Source: Cyclobacteriaceae bacterium (GTDB taxonomy: Bacteria > Bacteroidota > Bacteroidia > Cytophagales > Cyclobacteriaceae). Taken from it: DNA of 64,000 nt. The translations under genes and the position numbers were made by a program. Below the pieces are notes generated by a model. The model ran no database searches. It had not been told where the DNA came from and was given only the letters and a program-made list of their open reading frames with translations. This document shows positions 11,912-59,608 of this stretch, in pieces. Position 1 is the stretch's first letter; the number at the start of each line of letters is the position of its first letter. The stretch spans positions 1 through 64,000 of the forward strand of contig PXCO01000071.1 of the NCBI GenBank assembly GCA_003565295.1, in the 5' to 3' direction.

Positions 11912-12901
11912 ATGAAATTAGCCGTAGTGGGAGCCACTGGATTAGTGGGCTCCGAAATCCTGGAAGTGCTGGAAGAGCATAGTTTTCCATTCGACGAATT
12001 GTTGCTGGTGGCCAGTGAACGATCCGCCGGAAAGAAAATGACCTTTAAAGGGGTGGAATATACCGTCATTGGTCTTAAGGAAGCGGTGGATAAAAAACCG
12101 GATATGGCCATTTTTTCGGCCGGTGGTAGCACCTCCTTGGAGTGGGCACCAAAATTTGCAGAGGTTGGCACCATCGTGATCGATAACTCCTCCGCCTGGA
12201 GAATGGATCCCACCAAGAAGCTGGTGGTACCTGAAATCAATGGGAAATCCCTGCGTATTGACGACCGTATCATCGCCAATCCCAACTGCTCCACCATTCA
12301 AATGGTCTTGCCCCTTTCACCCCTTAGGCAAAAATATGGCATAAAACGCATAGTGGTGTCCACCTACCAATCGGTGACCGGAACAGGAAAAGCTGCGGTG
12401 GATCAAATGATGGCCGAGAGAAATGGGGATAAAGCCGAAATGGTGTACCCCTATAAAATAGACCTCAATGTACTTCCTCATATCGATGTGTTTCAGGAAA
12501 ACGGATACACTAAGGAGGAAATGAAGATGATCAATGAGACCAAGAAAATCTTCGAAGATCCCAGCATCCAAGTTACCGCCACCACAGTACGTATTCCCGT
12601 GATGGGCGGGCACAGTGAATCGGTAAATGTGGAATTCAAAACAGACTTCGACCTGGAAGAAGTTAAAAAAATCCTTTCCACTACACCAGGGGTGGTCCTA
12701 CAGGATGATCCTGCCAACAATGTATACCCCATGCCCATCAATGCCCATAAAAAGGATGAGGTATTTGTGGGAAGATTAAGGAGGGACGAAAGTCAGCCCA
12801 ACACGCTGAACATGTGGATAGTGGCTGATAACCTTCGTAAGGGTGCGGCCACGAATGCGGTGCAAATCGCTTCCTACTTAATGGAACACAGCATGGCCTA
12901 G
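11912..12901 (+). CDS. asd: Aspartate-semialdehyde dehydrogenase
   Basis: GATGLVGSEILEVLEE N-terminus, IANPNCSTIQMV active-site Cys motif, RIPVMGGHSESV. Confidence 0.95.
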   Translation: MKLAVVGATGLVGSEILEVLEEHSFPFDELLLVASERSAGKKMTFKGVEYTVIGLKEAVDKKPDMAIFSAGGSTSLEWAPKFAEVGTIVIDNSSAWRMDPTKKLVVPEINGKSLRIDDRIIANPNCSTIQMVLPLSPLRQKYGIKRIVVSTYQSVTGTGKAAVDQMMAERNGDKAEMVYPYKIDLNVLPHIDVFQENGYTKEEMKMINETKKIFEDPSIQVTATTVRIPVMGGHSESVNVEFKTDFDLEEVKKILSTTPGVVLQDDPANNVYPMPINAHKKDEVFVGRLRRDESQPNTLNMWIVADNLRKGAATNAVQIASYLMEHSMA

Positions 12902-12904
12902 GCC

Positions 12905-14110
12905 ATGGATATTCTTTCCCTTTATACACAGGAATTACAAGCATTTGTGCAGGATCATTTATGGGATGATCCTGCTCATTTACTGCTCAAATATGCGGGA
13001 AGATCCCATTTGGACATCAAAGTCGCAGCAGCTCAAATAGCCGCTAGGCAGAAATCCGCGAATAAATTGCCCGAATGGAGTAAAAACCCTTCCATTATTT
13101 TCCCTCCTAGTCTATCTTTGGAGCAATGCTCTTCCCAAGCCACTGCCCTCTACAAGGCTCAACTGACTCATGGCCAATCCTTTGCAGACCTTACCGGAGG
13201 TTTCGGTGTGGACACCTTTTACATAGGACAACATTTTAAAAGTATTGTATATGTGGAAAAGCAAAATGACTTGTTTCATCTTGCAAGCCACAATCTGAAA
13301 TTTCTATTGCCAAACCAGGATATTCGTTTGGTAAATGGAGATGGCATAGCTTATATTAATAAATCGGATCAAAGGTTTGACCTGGTATATGTCGACCCTG
13401 CTAGGAGAGGGGAGGGGAATCAAAAGCTCTTTGAACTTAGCCTAAGTGAGCCAGATGTGGTAAAGCACTGGGGCCTATTATGCAATAACGCCAACATGGT
13501 CATGATCAAGGCTTCTCCCATGTTGGATATACATGCAGCCGTTCGCCAATTGAAGGGACTTTCTTCCATACATGTGGTAGCACATAAACAAGAGGTCAAA
13601 GAATTGCTACTTATCAAAGATTCTCGAATAAAAAGAACGGATCCTGAAATTGTTGTTGTGGAGTTGAGCAGGGATAATGTTTCTTTATTTACTTTTAGGC
13701 TTTTAGATGAAAAAGAAAGCAAGCCCACTACCGGCCCATTGGAACGGTTTCTGATTATTCCGCATCCAGGAATAATCAAGTCAGGAGGGTTCAACACTTT
13801 CGGTAAGCGATATGAACTTCTAAAGGCCCATGCCAACACACAAATTTACACCAGTCATAAGTTTCCAAGTTCAAAAATACCAGGAAAAGTATTGGAAGTG
13901 ATCAGTGAAATTAAATTGGACAGGAAACATATCCGCAGAGAGTTTCCGGATGGTTTGGTAAATGTAATTGCTAAAAACCATCCCTTGAAAGCCGAGGCCT
14001 GCAAAAAAAAATTCAAACTCAAAGATGGTGGGGATGATTATTTGGTTTTAGTGACAGATTCTGAAAACCGTGGCAGGGCATTAAAGTGTCAAGTGGCAAA
14101 ACAAGATTAA
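12905..14110 (+). CDS. Class I SAM-dependent methyltransferase with THUMP-like domain
   Basis: FADLTGGFGVDTFYIG SAM-binding motif and VYVDPARR. Confidence 0.75.
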   Translation: MDILSLYTQELQAFVQDHLWDDPAHLLLKYAGRSHLDIKVAAAQIAARQKSANKLPEWSKNPSIIFPPSLSLEQCSSQATALYKAQLTHGQSFADLTGGFGVDTFYIGQHFKSIVYVEKQNDLFHLASHNLKFLLPNQDIRLVNGDGIAYINKSDQRFDLVYVDPARRGEGNQKLFELSLSEPDVVKHWGLLCNNANMVMIKASPMLDIHAAVRQLKGLSSIHVVAHKQEVKELLLIKDSRIKRTDPEIVVVELSRDNVSLFTFRLLDEKESKPTTGPLERFLIIPHPGIIKSGGFNTFGKRYELLKAHANTQIYTSHKFPSSKIPGKVLEVISEIKLDRKHIRREFPDGLVNVIAKNHPLKAEACKKKFKLKDGGDDYLVLVTDSENRGRALKCQVAKQD

Positions 14111-53902: not shown

Positions 53903-53918
53903 TGTTCCACGTGGAACA
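53903..53918. promoter_or_regulatory. parS-like ParB/Spo0J site 1 (TGTTCCACGTGGAACA)
   Basis: Perfect 16-bp palindrome matching the TGTTNCACGTGNAACA-type parS pattern. Confidence 0.85.
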
Positions 53919-53948
53919 TTCCCCGAGAAGACCAAAGGCATAGGCAGG

Positions 53949-53964
53949 TGTTCCACGTGGAACA
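53949..53964. promoter_or_regulatory. parS-like site 2 (TGTTCCACGTGGAACA)
   Basis: Identical to site 1, 46 bp downstream. Confidence 0.85.
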
Positions 53965-53993
53965 CAAGCAAAGAACCAAAAAGATTAAACTGA

Positions 53994-54009
53994 TGTTTCA
54001 CGTGGAACA
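53994..54009. promoter_or_regulatory. parS-like site 3 (TGTTTCACGTGGAACA)
   Basis: One base different from sites 1 and 2; 45 bp downstream of site 2. Confidence 0.85.
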
Positions 54010-54152
54010 TTGCAAACGGAAATCGGGGTGAAAATAGGGCGGATGGGGGTTTCATAAAAGTTGATAAATTCACCAAAAATAATTTCCTATCGGGTCAGTT
54101 ACCTTAAGAGATCAAAACCGACAACCGAGGGAATAATTAAAAATTGAACAAT

Positions 54153-56018
54153 ATGTTTGAAAAATACGATGTGATAGTGGTTGGTGCAGGACATGCCGGC
54201 TGCGAAGCTGCGCATGCGGCAGCTCAGATGGGCTCAAAAGTACTCCTATGCACCATGAATATGAACACTATTGCTCAAATGTCATGCAACCCCGCAATGG
54301 GAGGAGTGGCAAAAGGACAAATTGTTAGGGAAATTGATGCATTAGGAGGAATGTCAGGAATTATTTCAGACAAATCCATGATACAGTTTAGAATGCTCAA
54401 CCGATCAAAGGGTCCGGCAATGTGGTCTCCTAGAACACAGAATGACCGAATGCGCTTCGCAGAGGAATGGAGATTGGCTTTGGAAAAAACACCCAACGTT
54501 GATTTTTGGCAAGAGATGATAAAGGGAATCATCGTAAAAAAGGGTAGGGTAGTTGGTGTGAAAACAGGACTTGGAATAGAAATTCCAGGAAAATCCGTAA
54601 TTCTTACGAATGGCACCTTTCTCAACGGCATCATACATATCGGTGAAAAACAGTTTGGTGGCGGCAGAACAGGGGAAGCGGCGGCAAAAGGAATCACAGA
54701 ACAGCTGATTGAACTTGGGTTCGAATCAGGAAGAATGAAAACGGGTACACCCCCACGGGTAGATGGTAGATCTCTAAACTATGAAAGAATGGAAATCCAA
54801 CATGGTGACGAGAAACCAGAAAAATTTTCATATGGAGATGAAACAAAAATATTAGAACAACAAAAAAATTGCTGGATAACCTATACCAACAAAGCAGTAC
54901 ATGAAACCTTGGAAACTGGATTTGATCGATCCCCTATGTTCAATGGAAGAATAAAAGGTCTAGGCCCAAGATACTGCCCTTCCATAGAAGATAAAATAAA
55001 CAGATTTGCTGAAAGGGAAAGACATCAAATTTTCGTAGAACCGGAAGGTTGGGATACTGTAGAAATCTATGTAAATGGATTTTCTACGTCTTTGCCAGAA
55101 GATATTCAACAAAAAGCATTGAGAAGTATCTCCGGATTTGAACAAGCGAAAATGTTCAGACCGGGATATGCAATAGAATACGATTTCTTCCAACCTACAC
55201 AGTTGAAAGCAACTTTAGAAACAAAATTGATCCAAAACCTGTTTTTTGCGGGACAAATCAATGGAACCACAGGATATGAGGAGGCTGCATCACAAGGTTT
55301 GATCGCAGGCATAAATGCCCACCAAAACATAAACGAGAATGAACCATTTGTCCTAAAAAGAGCAGATGCCTATATAGGCGTATTGATTGACGATCTCATT
55401 AATAAGGGTACCCAGGAGCCATATAGAATGTTCACATCCCGTGCAGAATTCAGGTTATTACTGCGACAGGACAATGCAGATATCCGACTCACAAAAAAAG
55501 GGTATGATATAGGTCTTGCAAAAGAACACAGATGGAAAGCCGTTCAGCAAAAAATGGAGGAAACAAAGGAAATCTTAAAGGTGGTAAAAAACATAAAACT
55601 AGACCCTGAATGGATAAACCCATTTCTTAGAAAGAAGAAAACTGCAGAAATAAAAGAAAAAACCAATATGGAAAAATTGATCAAAAGACCACATCTAGGA
55701 ATAGCTGACCTCTTAGAGGCAAATGTGATAATAAGTGATCAATTATCCACTTTCTCAAAAGAAGCATTAGAGCAAGCAGAAATCCAGATAAAATACGAAA
55801 GCTATATCAGTAAAGAAAAACAGATGGTAAATAAAATACATCAGCTAGAAGGATATAAAATACCATCAGATTTCCGATATGAGCAGCTAAAAGCATTGTC
55901 AGCAGAAGGCAGACAAAAATTGCTCAACATCCGACCCGAAACCCTAGGTCAGGCTTCCCGTATAAGTGGTGTTTCCCCAGCAGATTTATCAATTTTAACC
56001 GTTTACCTAGGAAGATAA
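54153..56018 (+). CDS. mnmG: tRNA uridine-5-carboxymethylaminomethyl(34) synthesis enzyme MnmG (GidA)
   Basis: VIVVGAGHAGCEAAHAAAQMG; SCNPAMGGVAKGQIVREIDALGG; MKTGTPPRVDGRSL. Start at ATG; ORF track start 54144 is TTG. Confidence 0.97.
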   Translation: MFEKYDVIVVGAGHAGCEAAHAAAQMGSKVLLCTMNMNTIAQMSCNPAMGGVAKGQIVREIDALGGMSGIISDKSMIQFRMLNRSKGPAMWSPRTQNDRMRFAEEWRLALEKTPNVDFWQEMIKGIIVKKGRVVGVKTGLGIEIPGKSVILTNGTFLNGIIHIGEKQFGGGRTGEAAAKGITEQLIELGFESGRMKTGTPPRVDGRSLNYERMEIQHGDEKPEKFSYGDETKILEQQKNCWITYTNKAVHETLETGFDRSPMFNGRIKGLGPRYCPSIEDKINRFAERERHQIFVEPEGWDTVEIYVNGFSTSLPEDIQQKALRSISGFEQAKMFRPGYAIEYDFFQPTQLKATLETKLIQNLFFAGQINGTTGYEEAASQGLIAGINAHQNINENEPFVLKRADAYIGVLIDDLINKGTQEPYRMFTSRAEFRLLLRQDNADIRLTKKGYDIGLAKEHRWKAVQQKMEETKEILKVVKNIKLDPEWINPFLRKKKTAEIKEKTNMEKLIKRPHLGIADLLEANVIISDQLSTFSKEALEQAEIQIKYESYISKEKQMVNKIHQLEGYKIPSDFRYEQLKALSAEGRQKLLNIRPETLGQASRISGVSPADLSILTVYLGR

Positions 56019-56022
56019 TAAT

Positions 56023-56904
56023 ATGTACGAAAAATTGAATAAATGCCCCCTATGCGAAAGTGGGCATTTTTCTAATATGAGCGTCATTAAAGACCATGCA
56101 GTTTCCAAGGAATCGTTTTCAATTTGTAAATGCAAAACCTGTGGCTTAATATTTACAAACCCGAGACCAGACGAAAAAAACATCCAAAACTATTACCAGT
56201 CACCAAACTATATATCACACACAAACCAAACGAATAATTTCATTGATTTCCTCTATAAACTAGTTAGAATTTACACTACCAGACAAAAATTATCATGGAT
56301 CAATAAGTTTCACCCTAAAAAGGGGAGACTATTAGATCTGGGTTGCGGGACAGGCCATTTTTTATCAATGGCTATGAAGAAAAATTGGAAAACAATAGGG
56401 ATTGAACCTAATGAAATAGCAAGAAAACAAGCATTGCTAAAGCATTTGGATATCAGAAAAGACATAGATTCCATTAAAAATGAAAAAAAATTTGATGTCA
56501 TCACTCTTTTTCATGTACTGGAACATATTCATCAACTTGATCCTACAATCAAAGATCTTTTAAAAGCTCTTAAAAAAAGAGGAAGTTTAATCATAGCCTT
56601 TCCCAATCATGATTCACATGATAGAGCCCACTATGAAGAAAAATGGGCATCCTATGATATTCCCCGACATCTCTATCATTTTAATAAAAATTCAATGGAG
56701 CATTTGGCAAATAAATACTCCCTGACAATAAGAGAAATATTACCAATGAAATTTGACAGCTATTACATCAGTCTACTATCTGATAAGTATCAAGGAAATA
56801 CAAAAAATCCAACAGGTGCTTTCTTAAAGGGTCATCGGTTTAATAAAATGGCAAAAACAGATGGCAATTATTCAAGTTTAGTTTTCGTTCTGAGAAAGAA
56901 ATGA
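56023..56904 (+). CDS. Class I SAM-dependent methyltransferase with N-terminal Zn-finger-like CxxC motifs
   Basis: CPLCESG, CKCKTCGLIFTNPRP; LLDLGCGTGHFLSMA. Confidence 0.88.
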   Translation: MYEKLNKCPLCESGHFSNMSVIKDHAVSKESFSICKCKTCGLIFTNPRPDEKNIQNYYQSPNYISHTNQTNNFIDFLYKLVRIYTTRQKLSWINKFHPKKGRLLDLGCGTGHFLSMAMKKNWKTIGIEPNEIARKQALLKHLDIRKDIDSIKNEKKFDVITLFHVLEHIHQLDPTIKDLLKALKKRGSLIIAFPNHDSHDRAHYEEKWASYDIPRHLYHFNKNSMEHLANKYSLTIREILPMKFDSYYISLLSDKYQGNTKNPTGAFLKGHRFNKMAKTDGNYSSLVFVLRKK

Positions 56905-58655
56905 ATAAACTGATCTCATACATTTTGGGAATCATCAGCATCGCTTTGTTACTATCCTGTGCAAAACAAAGTAGTCCCATGGGAGGACCTAAAGATGAGG
57001 CACCACCAGAATTGGTTTCGATGGATCCAAAAAATGAAAGTACAAACATAAACCCATCGGAAATTAATTTAATCTTTAATGAATTCGTCAAATTAGAAAA
57101 CCCAAATAAACAAATTATCATCACTCCCAAAATCAATGTAGATGAAGTTGAGTTCCTAGCCACAAGAAATAGGGTAAACATAAAACTAAACCAAGAGCTG
57201 GAAGAAAACACTACCTATGTTTTCAACTTTCAAAAAAGCATCCAGGATATCACAGAAAGCAATCCGGTAGAAAATATGAAACTAGTGTTTTCAACAGGGG
57301 ATAAAATAGATAGCCTAAAGGTTAGTGGTAAAACTGCTTATATATTTCCTCCAAAAAACAGGGAAATTAAAGATGTACTGGTAGGTCTATATGAAGATGC
57401 TGACACTACAGATTTGTTTATTGCTCCACCCTATTATATCGCACAAACAGATACGGCTGGAAACTTTGAAATAACCAATATTAAAGCAGGCAGATACAGG
57501 GTTTACGCTTGGCATGATGATAACAATTCCTTGAAAGCTGAATATAAAACAGAGGCATATGGGTTTCTGGAAGAACCAATCGATGTGGTAGAAGACATAA
57601 ATAATATACACATCAATCTCTTCAAGGGAGACCTTACAGAGTTAAAAATAAACAGAACTGGAACTACAGGCAGCAATTTTGACATCATCCTCAGCAAACC
57701 ACCCTTAGAATATGAGGTCATTCATGAAGACCTCAACGAAAGCCTGTTTTACAGACTAAATGATAAAAATCTAAGAGTTTACCATACAAACATACGGGAA
57801 GACAGTACACAAATTCAATTAAAAGTAAGGGACTCTGTAGGCTTTGAAATTGACACTACCCTATACGCAAAATTTATGGAAAGTGACAGGAAAAAAGAAG
57901 AGCTCGAAATCACAACAAACAGTGGCAAATCTTTTCTAAAAACCATCCGATCAGAATGGAGATCCAATAAACCATTAAAATCCATCAATTTTGATTCGTT
58001 GTTGGTCAAATATGATACGGCAGGAATAATTCCCATAAAACCGGAAAACGTATATTTCACTGATAGCATAAAACGAACAAAGTTCATCATTGAAATAAAT
58101 ATTCCCGATACACTTACTTTTGAAACATACAAAATCTACGCAGGGGATTCCACATTACAGGACATAGAAAATGTCTATAATAAAGATAAGATCGAGGCAA
58201 ACTATAAGAAATTAAAGGAAGATAGACTAGCAGACGGACTTTCCGGAAAAGTAAATACAGAAGAACGTCCAATAATTTTACAATTATTAAATAAAAATGG
58301 AGATATTTTACAGGAAAAATACTTAGAAGAATCAAATATATTCAATTTTGATAGAATAGAAGCTAGTGAATACAGGCTAAGGGCAGTAATAGATCGAAAT
58401 AAAAATAAACGATGGGATACAGGCAACTACTATGAAAAAAGACAACCCGAGCCCGTATATTTTTTCTTTGATCAAGAAAACAAATCAGGAGAGATCATGT
58501 TAAGGGGAGGTTGGACACTTACAGATTTGATGATTGATCCAAGAAGAGATACGGGTATTTATAGAACCGAAAAACCCACGCCAAACCTGGAAGATGAAAT
58601 AAAACTGGAATGGCCGGAAATCACTGAAAAAGACCTTGCCATTAATAGCCCATAG
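56901..58655 (+). CDS. Ig-like (Big_5) domain lipoprotein
   Basis: Lipobox LLSCAKQ; SPMGGPKDEAPPELVSMDPKNESTNINPSEINLIFNEFVKL. Confidence 0.85.
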   Translation: MNKLISYILGIISIALLLSCAKQSSPMGGPKDEAPPELVSMDPKNESTNINPSEINLIFNEFVKLENPNKQIIITPKINVDEVEFLATRNRVNIKLNQELEENTTYVFNFQKSIQDITESNPVENMKLVFSTGDKIDSLKVSGKTAYIFPPKNREIKDVLVGLYEDADTTDLFIAPPYYIAQTDTAGNFEITNIKAGRYRVYAWHDDNNSLKAEYKTEAYGFLEEPIDVVEDINNIHINLFKGDLTELKINRTGTTGSNFDIILSKPPLEYEVIHEDLNESLFYRLNDKNLRVYHTNIREDSTQIQLKVRDSVGFEIDTTLYAKFMESDRKKEELEITTNSGKSFLKTIRSEWRSNKPLKSINFDSLLVKYDTAGIIPIKPENVYFTDSIKRTKFIIEINIPDTLTFETYKIYAGDSTLQDIENVYNKDKIEANYKKLKEDRLADGLSGKVNTEERPIILQLLNKNGDILQEKYLEESNIFNFDRIEASEYRLRAVIDRNKNKRWDTGNYYEKRQPEPVYFFFDQENKSGEIMLRGGWTLTDLMIDPRRDTGIYRTEKPTPNLEDEIKLEWPEITEKDLAINSP

Positions 58656-59161
58656 AAACCGTGTGGATGAAATGTGTAAAACTGAGGATAATGAAAGGAT
58701 AAAGCATCGATTTTCCACAAGACAAATAGGAAAGCAATTTCAAAACTTACACGATGCTGATAACTCTCCACTTATCCCCAATTATTCACAAATAGGTTAA
58801 CAAGGATTTATTCACTCCATTATAAGAAACTCTTTCCACAGGCTTAAATCCATATATTACAAGTGACATAAATTCAACCAGTTAAGGCATAAATCAAAGT
58901 GGACAAAATGTAGACAAGTCAAAGAAGTTGAGCATAAAAAGGTGAACAAATCAGAAACCATTACTTATCTACATATCCACAGTATAATAACCATAACCGT
59001 TTTTTCTTAAATTAAATAACTATAATAATTAGACTGTGGGTAACTTCTGTCCATAAGGTCAAAAACCATTTTTTGGTTAAATTTTTTTATAAATTTAGTA
59101 TGCATGCATAATTTTTGTAGCTATTTTGAGCTAAAGGCTTTCAATATCCGTATTAACATTA
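58656..59161. other. Candidate chromosomal replication origin (oriC) with DnaA-box-like cluster and AT-rich segment
   Basis: TTATTCACA (58782-58790), TTTTCCACA (58711-58719), TTATTCACT (58808-58816), ATATCCACA (58973-58981), TTACCCACA on minus (59035-59043), TCATCCACA on minus (58662-58670), TTATCCCCA (58772-58780); AT-rich stretch 58983-59100. Confidence 0.65.
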
Positions 59162-59608
59162 ATGGGTAAAGAAGAAACATTCGATTTTCATATCAAGCAA
59201 ACCTGGCATGCTATTTCCAGGATGTATAATCAGATGGCACTTCAGGAGGGAATCACTACATCAATGGGATATGTTTTGATTAACATCAATTCCAAGGAGG
59301 GCACAGCTGCTACAAAAATAGCCCCTTTGATGGGCTTGGAGTCCAGAAGTCTTACCAGGGTATTAAAAAGTTTGGAGGAAAAAGGTTTGATCAAAAGAGT
59401 TCCAGACTTAAAGGACAAGCGTTCAGTGAAGGTGTATTTAACCAAAGAAGGTAAGGATAAACGCTCCACTGCCATTAAGACCATTAAAGATTTTAATCGG
59501 CAAATAGAGGAAACCTTAAATTCCAAAGAAATTGAATGTTTCTATAGCACCTTTGAAAAAATCAATCAAGTAATCTATCAATTACAAAACCGAATAAACC
59601 AACGATAA
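59162..59608 (+). CDS. MarR family transcriptional regulator
   Basis: GTAATKIAPLMGLESRSLTRVLKSLEEKGLIKRVPDLKDKRSVKVYLTKEG. Confidence 0.93.
   Translation: MGKEETFDFHIKQTWHAISRMYNQMALQEGITTSMGYVLININSKEGTAATKIAPLMGLESRSLTRVLKSLEEKGLIKRVPDLKDKRSVKVYLTKEGKDKRSTAIKTIKDFNRQIEETLNSKEIECFYSTFEKINQVIYQLQNRINQR

What the first reader, a model, noticed from the sequence alone, without database searches (positions are those of the whole stretch)
58656..59161. Candidate oriC: DnaA-box-like cluster and AT-rich unwinding segment, not next to dnaA
Seen: the 506-bp non-coding gap upstream of marR contains one perfect TTATNCACA (58782-58790) and several one-mismatch 9-mers on both strands: TTTTCCACA 58711, TTATCCCCA 58772, TTATTCACT 58808, ATATCCACA 58973, TTACCCACA(-) 59035-59043, TCATCCACA(-) 58662-58670. 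The boxes at 58973 (+) and 59035 (-) face each other across a 53-bp AT-rich stretch; on the minus strand the latter is followed by TAATTATTATAGTTATTT, which only weakly recalls a DnaA-trio. Established: DnaA boxes plus an AT-rich unwinding element define oriC. Inference: with the parS cluster about 5 kb upstream and mnmG between, this is likely the chromosome origin.
Basis: partly seen in the sequence, partly recalled or inferred. Interest (0 to 1): 0.75.

Follow-up and report, generated by a model that had tools for sequence, protein, structure and literature searches.

The report
Chromosome replication origin beside mnmG
This stretch of DNA is very probably where this bacterium (family Cyclobacteriaceae) starts copying its chromosome; it lies far from the initiator gene dnaA, which is unusual among bacteria at large but already described as normal for its phylum, so the find is real but largely ordinary.

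Summary
The 506-bp gap 58656-59161 has 8 DnaA boxes (≤1 mismatch) against 0.22 expected in shuffles (0 of 3000 reach 8) and about 0.24 per 506 bp in relatives. That tandem core is unique in the 5.6-Mb draft assembly. The same cluster follows the mnmG-methyltransferase-Ig operon across the family. In a complete relative the GC-skew minimum falls at this spot and the maximum half a chromosome away. All three parS sites of the genome lie 5 kb upstream, and dnaA is far off. So this is very probably the chromosomal oriC, about 58656-59045. The lowest-stability duplex of the gap lies exactly between the tandem pair and the facing box.

Corrections: the last ~60 bp (59099-59161) are the promoter/operator of marR, with a conserved ATGCATGCAT palindrome. 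The conserved landmark is the Ig gene/mnmG side, not marR. A DnaA-trio is only partly supported.

An oriC far from dnaA is already reported as common in Bacteroidetes, so this is a new member of a known kind. Side finding: several relatives, but not this genus, carry dense perfect DnaA boxes inside ordinary genes, mostly near oriC.

The parts
58656..59045 (.). candidate chromosomal oriC (DnaA-box cluster plus AT-rich unwinding segment)
   Evidence: 8 boxes vs 0.22 expected; orthologous cluster in the family; GC-skew minimum in G048
58662..58670 (-). DnaA box TCATCCACA
58683..58691 (-).
58711..58719 (+). DnaA box TTTTCCACA
58772..58780 (+). DnaA box TTATCCCCA
58782..58790 (+). DnaA box TTATTCACA
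58965..58981 (+). conserved tandem DnaA boxes TTATCTACA/ATATCCACA (8-bp offset), the origin core
   Evidence: pattern TTNYCNACANATCCACA occurs once in the whole draft assembly, here; aligned across the family
58982..59034 (.). AT-rich DNA-unwinding segment (81% AT) starting with the conserved TAATAA motif
   Evidence: lowest duplex stability of the gap, rank 48 of 63,948 windows; conserved position
59035..59043 (-). facing DnaA box TTACCCACA; followed on the minus strand by six trio-like triplets in this genome
53903..54009 (.). three perfect parS sites, the only ones in the assembly
59099..59110 (.). palindrome TATGCATGCATA, probable MarR operator (not part of oriC)
   Evidence: ATGCATGCAT 49-88 bp upstream of marR in 25 of 30 orthologous loci, 2 hits in 2.4 Mb background
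54144..56018 (+). mnmG (gidA), conserved origin neighbour
   Evidence: Pfam GIDA E=4.7e-163
56901..58655 (+). Big_5 (bacterial Ig-like) domain protein whose stop codon abuts the origin; conserved landmark
59162..59608 (+). MarR-family regulator
   Evidence: Pfam MarR E=6e-12

Best explanation
This is the chromosomal origin of replication (oriC) of a Cyclobacteriaceae bacterium in the same genus as Pleomorphovibrio marinus. Inferred mechanism: DnaA binds the scattered boxes at 58662-58790 and the tandem boxes at 58965-58981, oligomerises towards the adjacent AT-rich segment 58982-59034 and opens it, with the inverted box at 59035 bounding the opened region. ParB loads on the three parS sites 5 kb away to segregate the new origins. 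Shown here: box clustering, conservation, the least stable duplex of the gap, the skew minimum in a relative, parS co-location, distance from dnaA. Inferred: DnaA binding, unwinding and actual initiation.
For: (1) 8 boxes vs 0.22 expected, 0 of 3000 shuffles; no cluster above 3 in the rest of the window. (2) A box cluster directly downstream of the Ig-domain gene in relatives: at least 3 boxes in the first 600 bp in 19 of 20 genomes of 16 genera, and 5 and 7 in two Lunatimonas. (3) The tandem core aligns across the family, occurs once in this assembly, once in the same-genus relative and once in G048, each time in this gap, and in 43 of 69 family genomes with a hit it lies within 13 kb upstream of marR, 42 of 43 on the same strand; about 11 hits with the reversed control. 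(4) Complete genome G048: cumulative GC skew falls to a floor at 1.425-1.435 Mb and then rises; the box cluster is at 1,433,084-1,433,482 bp; the maximum near 4.35 Mb is about half of 5.69 Mb away. The best change point of strand-balanced 4-fold skew brackets the site in G118 and lies just after it in the same-genus G001 contig. (5) The only parS sites of the assembly are 5 kb upstream; where exact parS sites were found (15 of 20 genomes) they sit by the Ig/mnmG operon, apart from one extra site in G149. (6) dnaA is far away in the complete genomes and on another contig here with only scattered boxes. (7) An oriC far from dnaA is reported as common in Bacteroidetes (PMC4755523).
Against: No box in the gap is a perfect TTATCCACA; the single perfect TTATNCACA is at chance level. 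The skew in the same genus is weak with a broad minimum (740-925 kb against the site at 937 kb). The assembly is in 403 contigs, so no skew or ori/ter depth test was possible in this genome. Only about 20% of G048 and half the length of G118 were sampled, and raw skew in G118 bottoms at 1.21-1.45 Mb, not sharply at 1.29 Mb. Strict DnaA-trios after the conserved tandem pair are weak.
Confidence: 0.95

Rival explanations
1. The box cluster is a DnaA-titration or DnaA-regulated control site (datA/DBC-like, or a DnaA-controlled marR promoter) close to, but not at, the real origin.
For: DnaA-box clusters outside oriC exist in B. subtilis and E. coli (PMC5295017), and several relatives have dense perfect boxes near the origin.
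Against: In G048 the skew minimum coincides with this gap. The cluster follows the Ig/mnmG operon even where marR is 2-3 kb away. Only this gap joins tandem boxes, unstable duplex and facing box.
Confidence: 0.03
2. The gap is simply the marR promoter/operator and the DnaA-box matches are chance hits in AT-rich DNA.
For: The right end does carry a conserved marR operator palindrome, and the gap is 70% AT.
Against: 0 of 3000 composition-matched shuffles reach 8 boxes; the cluster is conserved in position across genera, including those where marR is not adjacent.
Confidence: 0.01
3. The origin of an integrated element or plasmid rather than the chromosome.
For: parS also occurs on plasmids (general knowledge).
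Against: Neighbours are core chromosomal genes (ybeY, mnmG); synteny is family-wide; in the complete relative G048 the site is on the single 5.69-Mb contig.
Confidence: 0.01

Closest known systems
Predicted oriC regions of Bacteroidetes (Prevotella intermedia, PMC4755523; Elizabethkingia meningoseptica, PMC8994065; DoriC)
   Same: Intergenic DnaA-box cluster at a GC-skew transition, far from dnaA.
   Different: Neighbour genes of those origins were not compared here; in this family the fixed landmark is the parS-mnmG-methyltransferase-Ig operon.
Basal unwinding system (BUS) of the Bacillus subtilis oriC
   Same: Co-oriented pair of DnaA boxes next to the unwinding DNA (PMC10721633). The TTATCCACA-AATCCACA arrangement followed by a T-rich tract recalls the B. 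subtilis element (sequence recalled from memory, not tested).
   Different: Not next to dnaA; an inverted box closes the far side; trios after the conserved pair are short (usually 2 in a row) and not above chance.
E. coli-type oriC next to mnmG (gidA)
   Same: mnmG is a neighbour, and the origin is one continuous intergenic region (E. coli side from general knowledge).
   Different: Two genes lie between mnmG and the origin; parS sites are present upstream.

Membership tests
DnaA-dependent chromosomal oriC | cluster of DnaA boxes beyond chance | tested here: met
   8 vs 0.22 expected, 0/3000 shuffles
DnaA-dependent chromosomal oriC | AT-rich, easily melted segment next to boxes | tested here: met
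   58982-59034 is the least stable 53-mer of the gap to within 1 bp, rank 48/63,948 in the window
DnaA-dependent chromosomal oriC | located at the GC-skew minimum | tested here: met
   met in complete relative G048; change point brackets or adjoins the site in G118 and G001; not testable in the own 403-contig assembly
DnaA-dependent chromosomal oriC | evolutionary conservation of the element and its setting | tested here: met
DnaA-dependent chromosomal oriC | DnaA binding, unwinding and initiation in vivo | not testable with these tools
   needs footprinting, marker frequency, autonomous replication assay
DnaA-dependent chromosomal oriC | adjacent to dnaA (common in bacteria, not required) | tested here: not met
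   dnaA on another contig and far off in complete relatives; reported as common in Bacteroidetes
BUS (tandem boxes + spacer + DnaA-trios) | co-oriented tandem DnaA boxes | tested here: met
   58965/58973, 8-bp offset, conserved
BUS (tandem boxes + spacer + DnaA-trios) | run of trios with middle A (3'-GAT-5' type) after the boxes | tested here: inconclusive
   two in a row after the tandem pair (P=0.68); six after the facing minus-strand box (P=0.02), not conserved family-wide
Origin-proximal ParABS centromere | parS sites clustered near oriC | tested here: met
   3 perfect sites 5 kb upstream, none elsewhere in the assembly even with 1 mismatch

The most novel reading that the evidence does not exclude
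Cyclobacteriaceae share a compact opening module: tandem DnaA boxes, a TAATAA motif, an AT tract and an inverted DnaA box, with box starts mostly 62-82 bp apart. It would be opened from both sides by DnaA rather than by the one-sided BUS. In some genera it is backed by a reservoir of perfect DnaA boxes written into ordinary genes around the origin that tunes initiation.
Probability: 0.3. Interest if true: 0.5.

Novelty: new member of a known kind. Interest (0 to 1): 0.3.

Why it matters
It fixes the replication origin for a family whose genomes are often started at dnaA (several complete relatives here have dnaA at about position 1 kb). It gives a usable landmark, the parS-mnmG-methyltransferase-Ig operon and the gap after it, for finding oriC in draft Cyclobacteriaceae genomes. 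The conserved core is a ready target for testing how DnaA opens origins in a phylum with few experimental data.

Tried and rejected
marR as the landmark was rejected: the core is 2-3 kb from marR in most relatives. One search left minus-strand loci unturned, so its empty rows for those loci are not used. An alternative origin at dnaA was rejected: only scattered imperfect boxes there. The 12.4-13.3 kb box group in the window was rejected: 4 boxes spread over 830 bp. A strict DnaA-trio scan gave a mixed result. A text search for the B. subtilis BUS sequence found nothing. Pedobacter and other distant mnmG loci show parS by mnmG but no box cluster within 10 kb, so the arrangement was not extended beyond the family, apart from a weak two-box case in L016.

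Full report
What is there. The gap between the Ig-domain gene (ends 58655) and marR (starts 59162) is 506 bp, 30% GC. Counting ≤1 mismatch to TTATCCACA there are 8 boxes. Dinucleotide shuffles of the gap give 0.22 on average and never more than 4 in 3000 trials. The best other 506-bp stretch of the window has 3, and background in two relatives is 0.24 per 506 bp. The 53-bp segment between 58973(+) and 59035(-) is 81% AT. It is, to within one base, the least stable 53-mer of the gap and ranks 48th of 63,948 in the window.

Surroundings. Upstream run an ATPase-domain protein, ybeY, three perfect parS sites, mnmG, a methyltransferase and an Ig-domain (Big_5) protein. Downstream are marR, a 3-hydroxyacyl-CoA dehydrogenase and a thiolase. 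The three parS sites are the only ones in the 5.62-Mb, 403-contig assembly even with one mismatch. dnaA is on another contig (C101) and only scattered imperfect boxes lie around it.

Relatives. The closest genome held is in the same genus; its contig matches Pleomorphovibrio marinus SW125 in length and position. In 20 family genomes the DNA just after the Ig gene was read: 19 have at least 3 boxes within 600 bp, and two Lunatimonas loci have 5 and 7. Alignment shows a conserved core TTAyCnACA-aATCCACA, then TAATAA, often TAATAG and a T-run, an AT-rich stretch, and an inverted box, with box starts mostly 62-82 bp apart. A pattern for the tandem boxes hits 69 of 150 family genomes at 81 sites, against about 11 for the reversed control. 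It occurs exactly once in this assembly, once in the same-genus genome and once in G048, each time in this gap. In 43 genomes the hit lies within 13 kb upstream of the marR orthologue, 42 on the same strand, most often about 2 kb away, so another gene commonly sits between origin and marR.

Skew. G048 is a single 5,693,670-bp contig. Sampling 20 kb every 100 kb, cumulative GC skew falls to its minimum around 1.4-1.5 Mb and peaks near 4.35 Mb. At 2.5-kb steps the floor spans 1.425-1.435 Mb and then climbs steadily; the box cluster is at 1,433,084-1,433,482 bp (box positions). dnaA is at 1.2 kb, far from either turning point. With four-fold degenerate sites balanced for gene strand, the best change point lies between samples bracketing the site in G118 (1.21-1.32 Mb, site 1.29 Mb) and just after the site in the same-genus contig (next sample 962 kb, site 937 kb). 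In that contig the raw skew is weak and its minimum broad.

Mechanism. The evidence supports a continuous oriC of about 390 bp. DnaA would bind the left boxes and the tandem pair, extend onto the AT-rich segment and open it. The tandem, co-oriented boxes match the first part of the basal unwinding system described for B. subtilis (PMC10721633; PMC8287927). The trio part is not settled: after the tandem pair only two triplets in a row meet the middle-A rule (P=0.68). On the minus strand, after the facing box, six do (P=0.02; first triplet a perfect 3'-GAT-5'), but this is not conserved across the family. Binding, opening and initiation are inferred.

What is not origin. The last part of the gap carries the palindrome TATGCATGCATA at 59099-59110. 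ATGCATGCAT occurs 49-88 bp upstream of marR in 25 of 30 orthologous loci, with or without the origin beside it, and only twice in 2.4 Mb of background. It is most simply the MarR operator.

Known or new. A study of Prevotella states that oriC is commonly far from dnaA in Bacteroidetes (PMC4755523), and Elizabethkingia gives another case (PMC8994065). Defining an origin from parS clusters plus skew, including where dnaA is elsewhere, has also been done (PMC10197239). This is a new member of a known kind, with a useful family-wide landmark.

Side finding. In G048, 48 of 128 perfect TTATCCACA sites fall in 228 kb (4% of the genome) around the origin. Most of those examined lie inside unrelated ordinary genes such as a family-A DNA polymerase gene, an amidase gene and a response-regulator gene, in various reading frames, so they are not a repeat. 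G116 has 38 within 27-143 kb left of its core, and G088 has 12 in 9 kb about 555 kb from its core. This assembly and its genus mate show little excess (105 vs 75 and 120 vs 99 against the reversed control). It resembles the DnaA-box clusters of B. subtilis (PMC5295017) but was not followed further.

Noticed in passing
G048 C1 1,352,369-1,579,909 (loci L169, L124, L167, L125); G116 C1 841-957 kb; G088 C1 622-631 kb: Perfect DnaA boxes are strongly concentrated in stretches near the origin (G048: 48 of 128 in 4% of the genome), mostly inside unrelated ordinary genes; a possible DnaA-titration reservoir in other genera of the family, not evident in this genus.
   Followed up: partly
window 59099-59110: Palindrome TATGCATGCATA upstream of marR, conserved in 25 of 30 marR orthologues: probable MarR operator.
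   Followed up: yes
window 53903-54009: Three perfect parS sites between ybeY and mnmG, the only ones in the assembly; parS also sits just before mnmG in two Pedobacter loci (L013, L015).
   Followed up: yes
window 12424-13260: Four one-mismatch DnaA-box-like 9-mers within about 830 bp; probably near chance.
   Followed up: no
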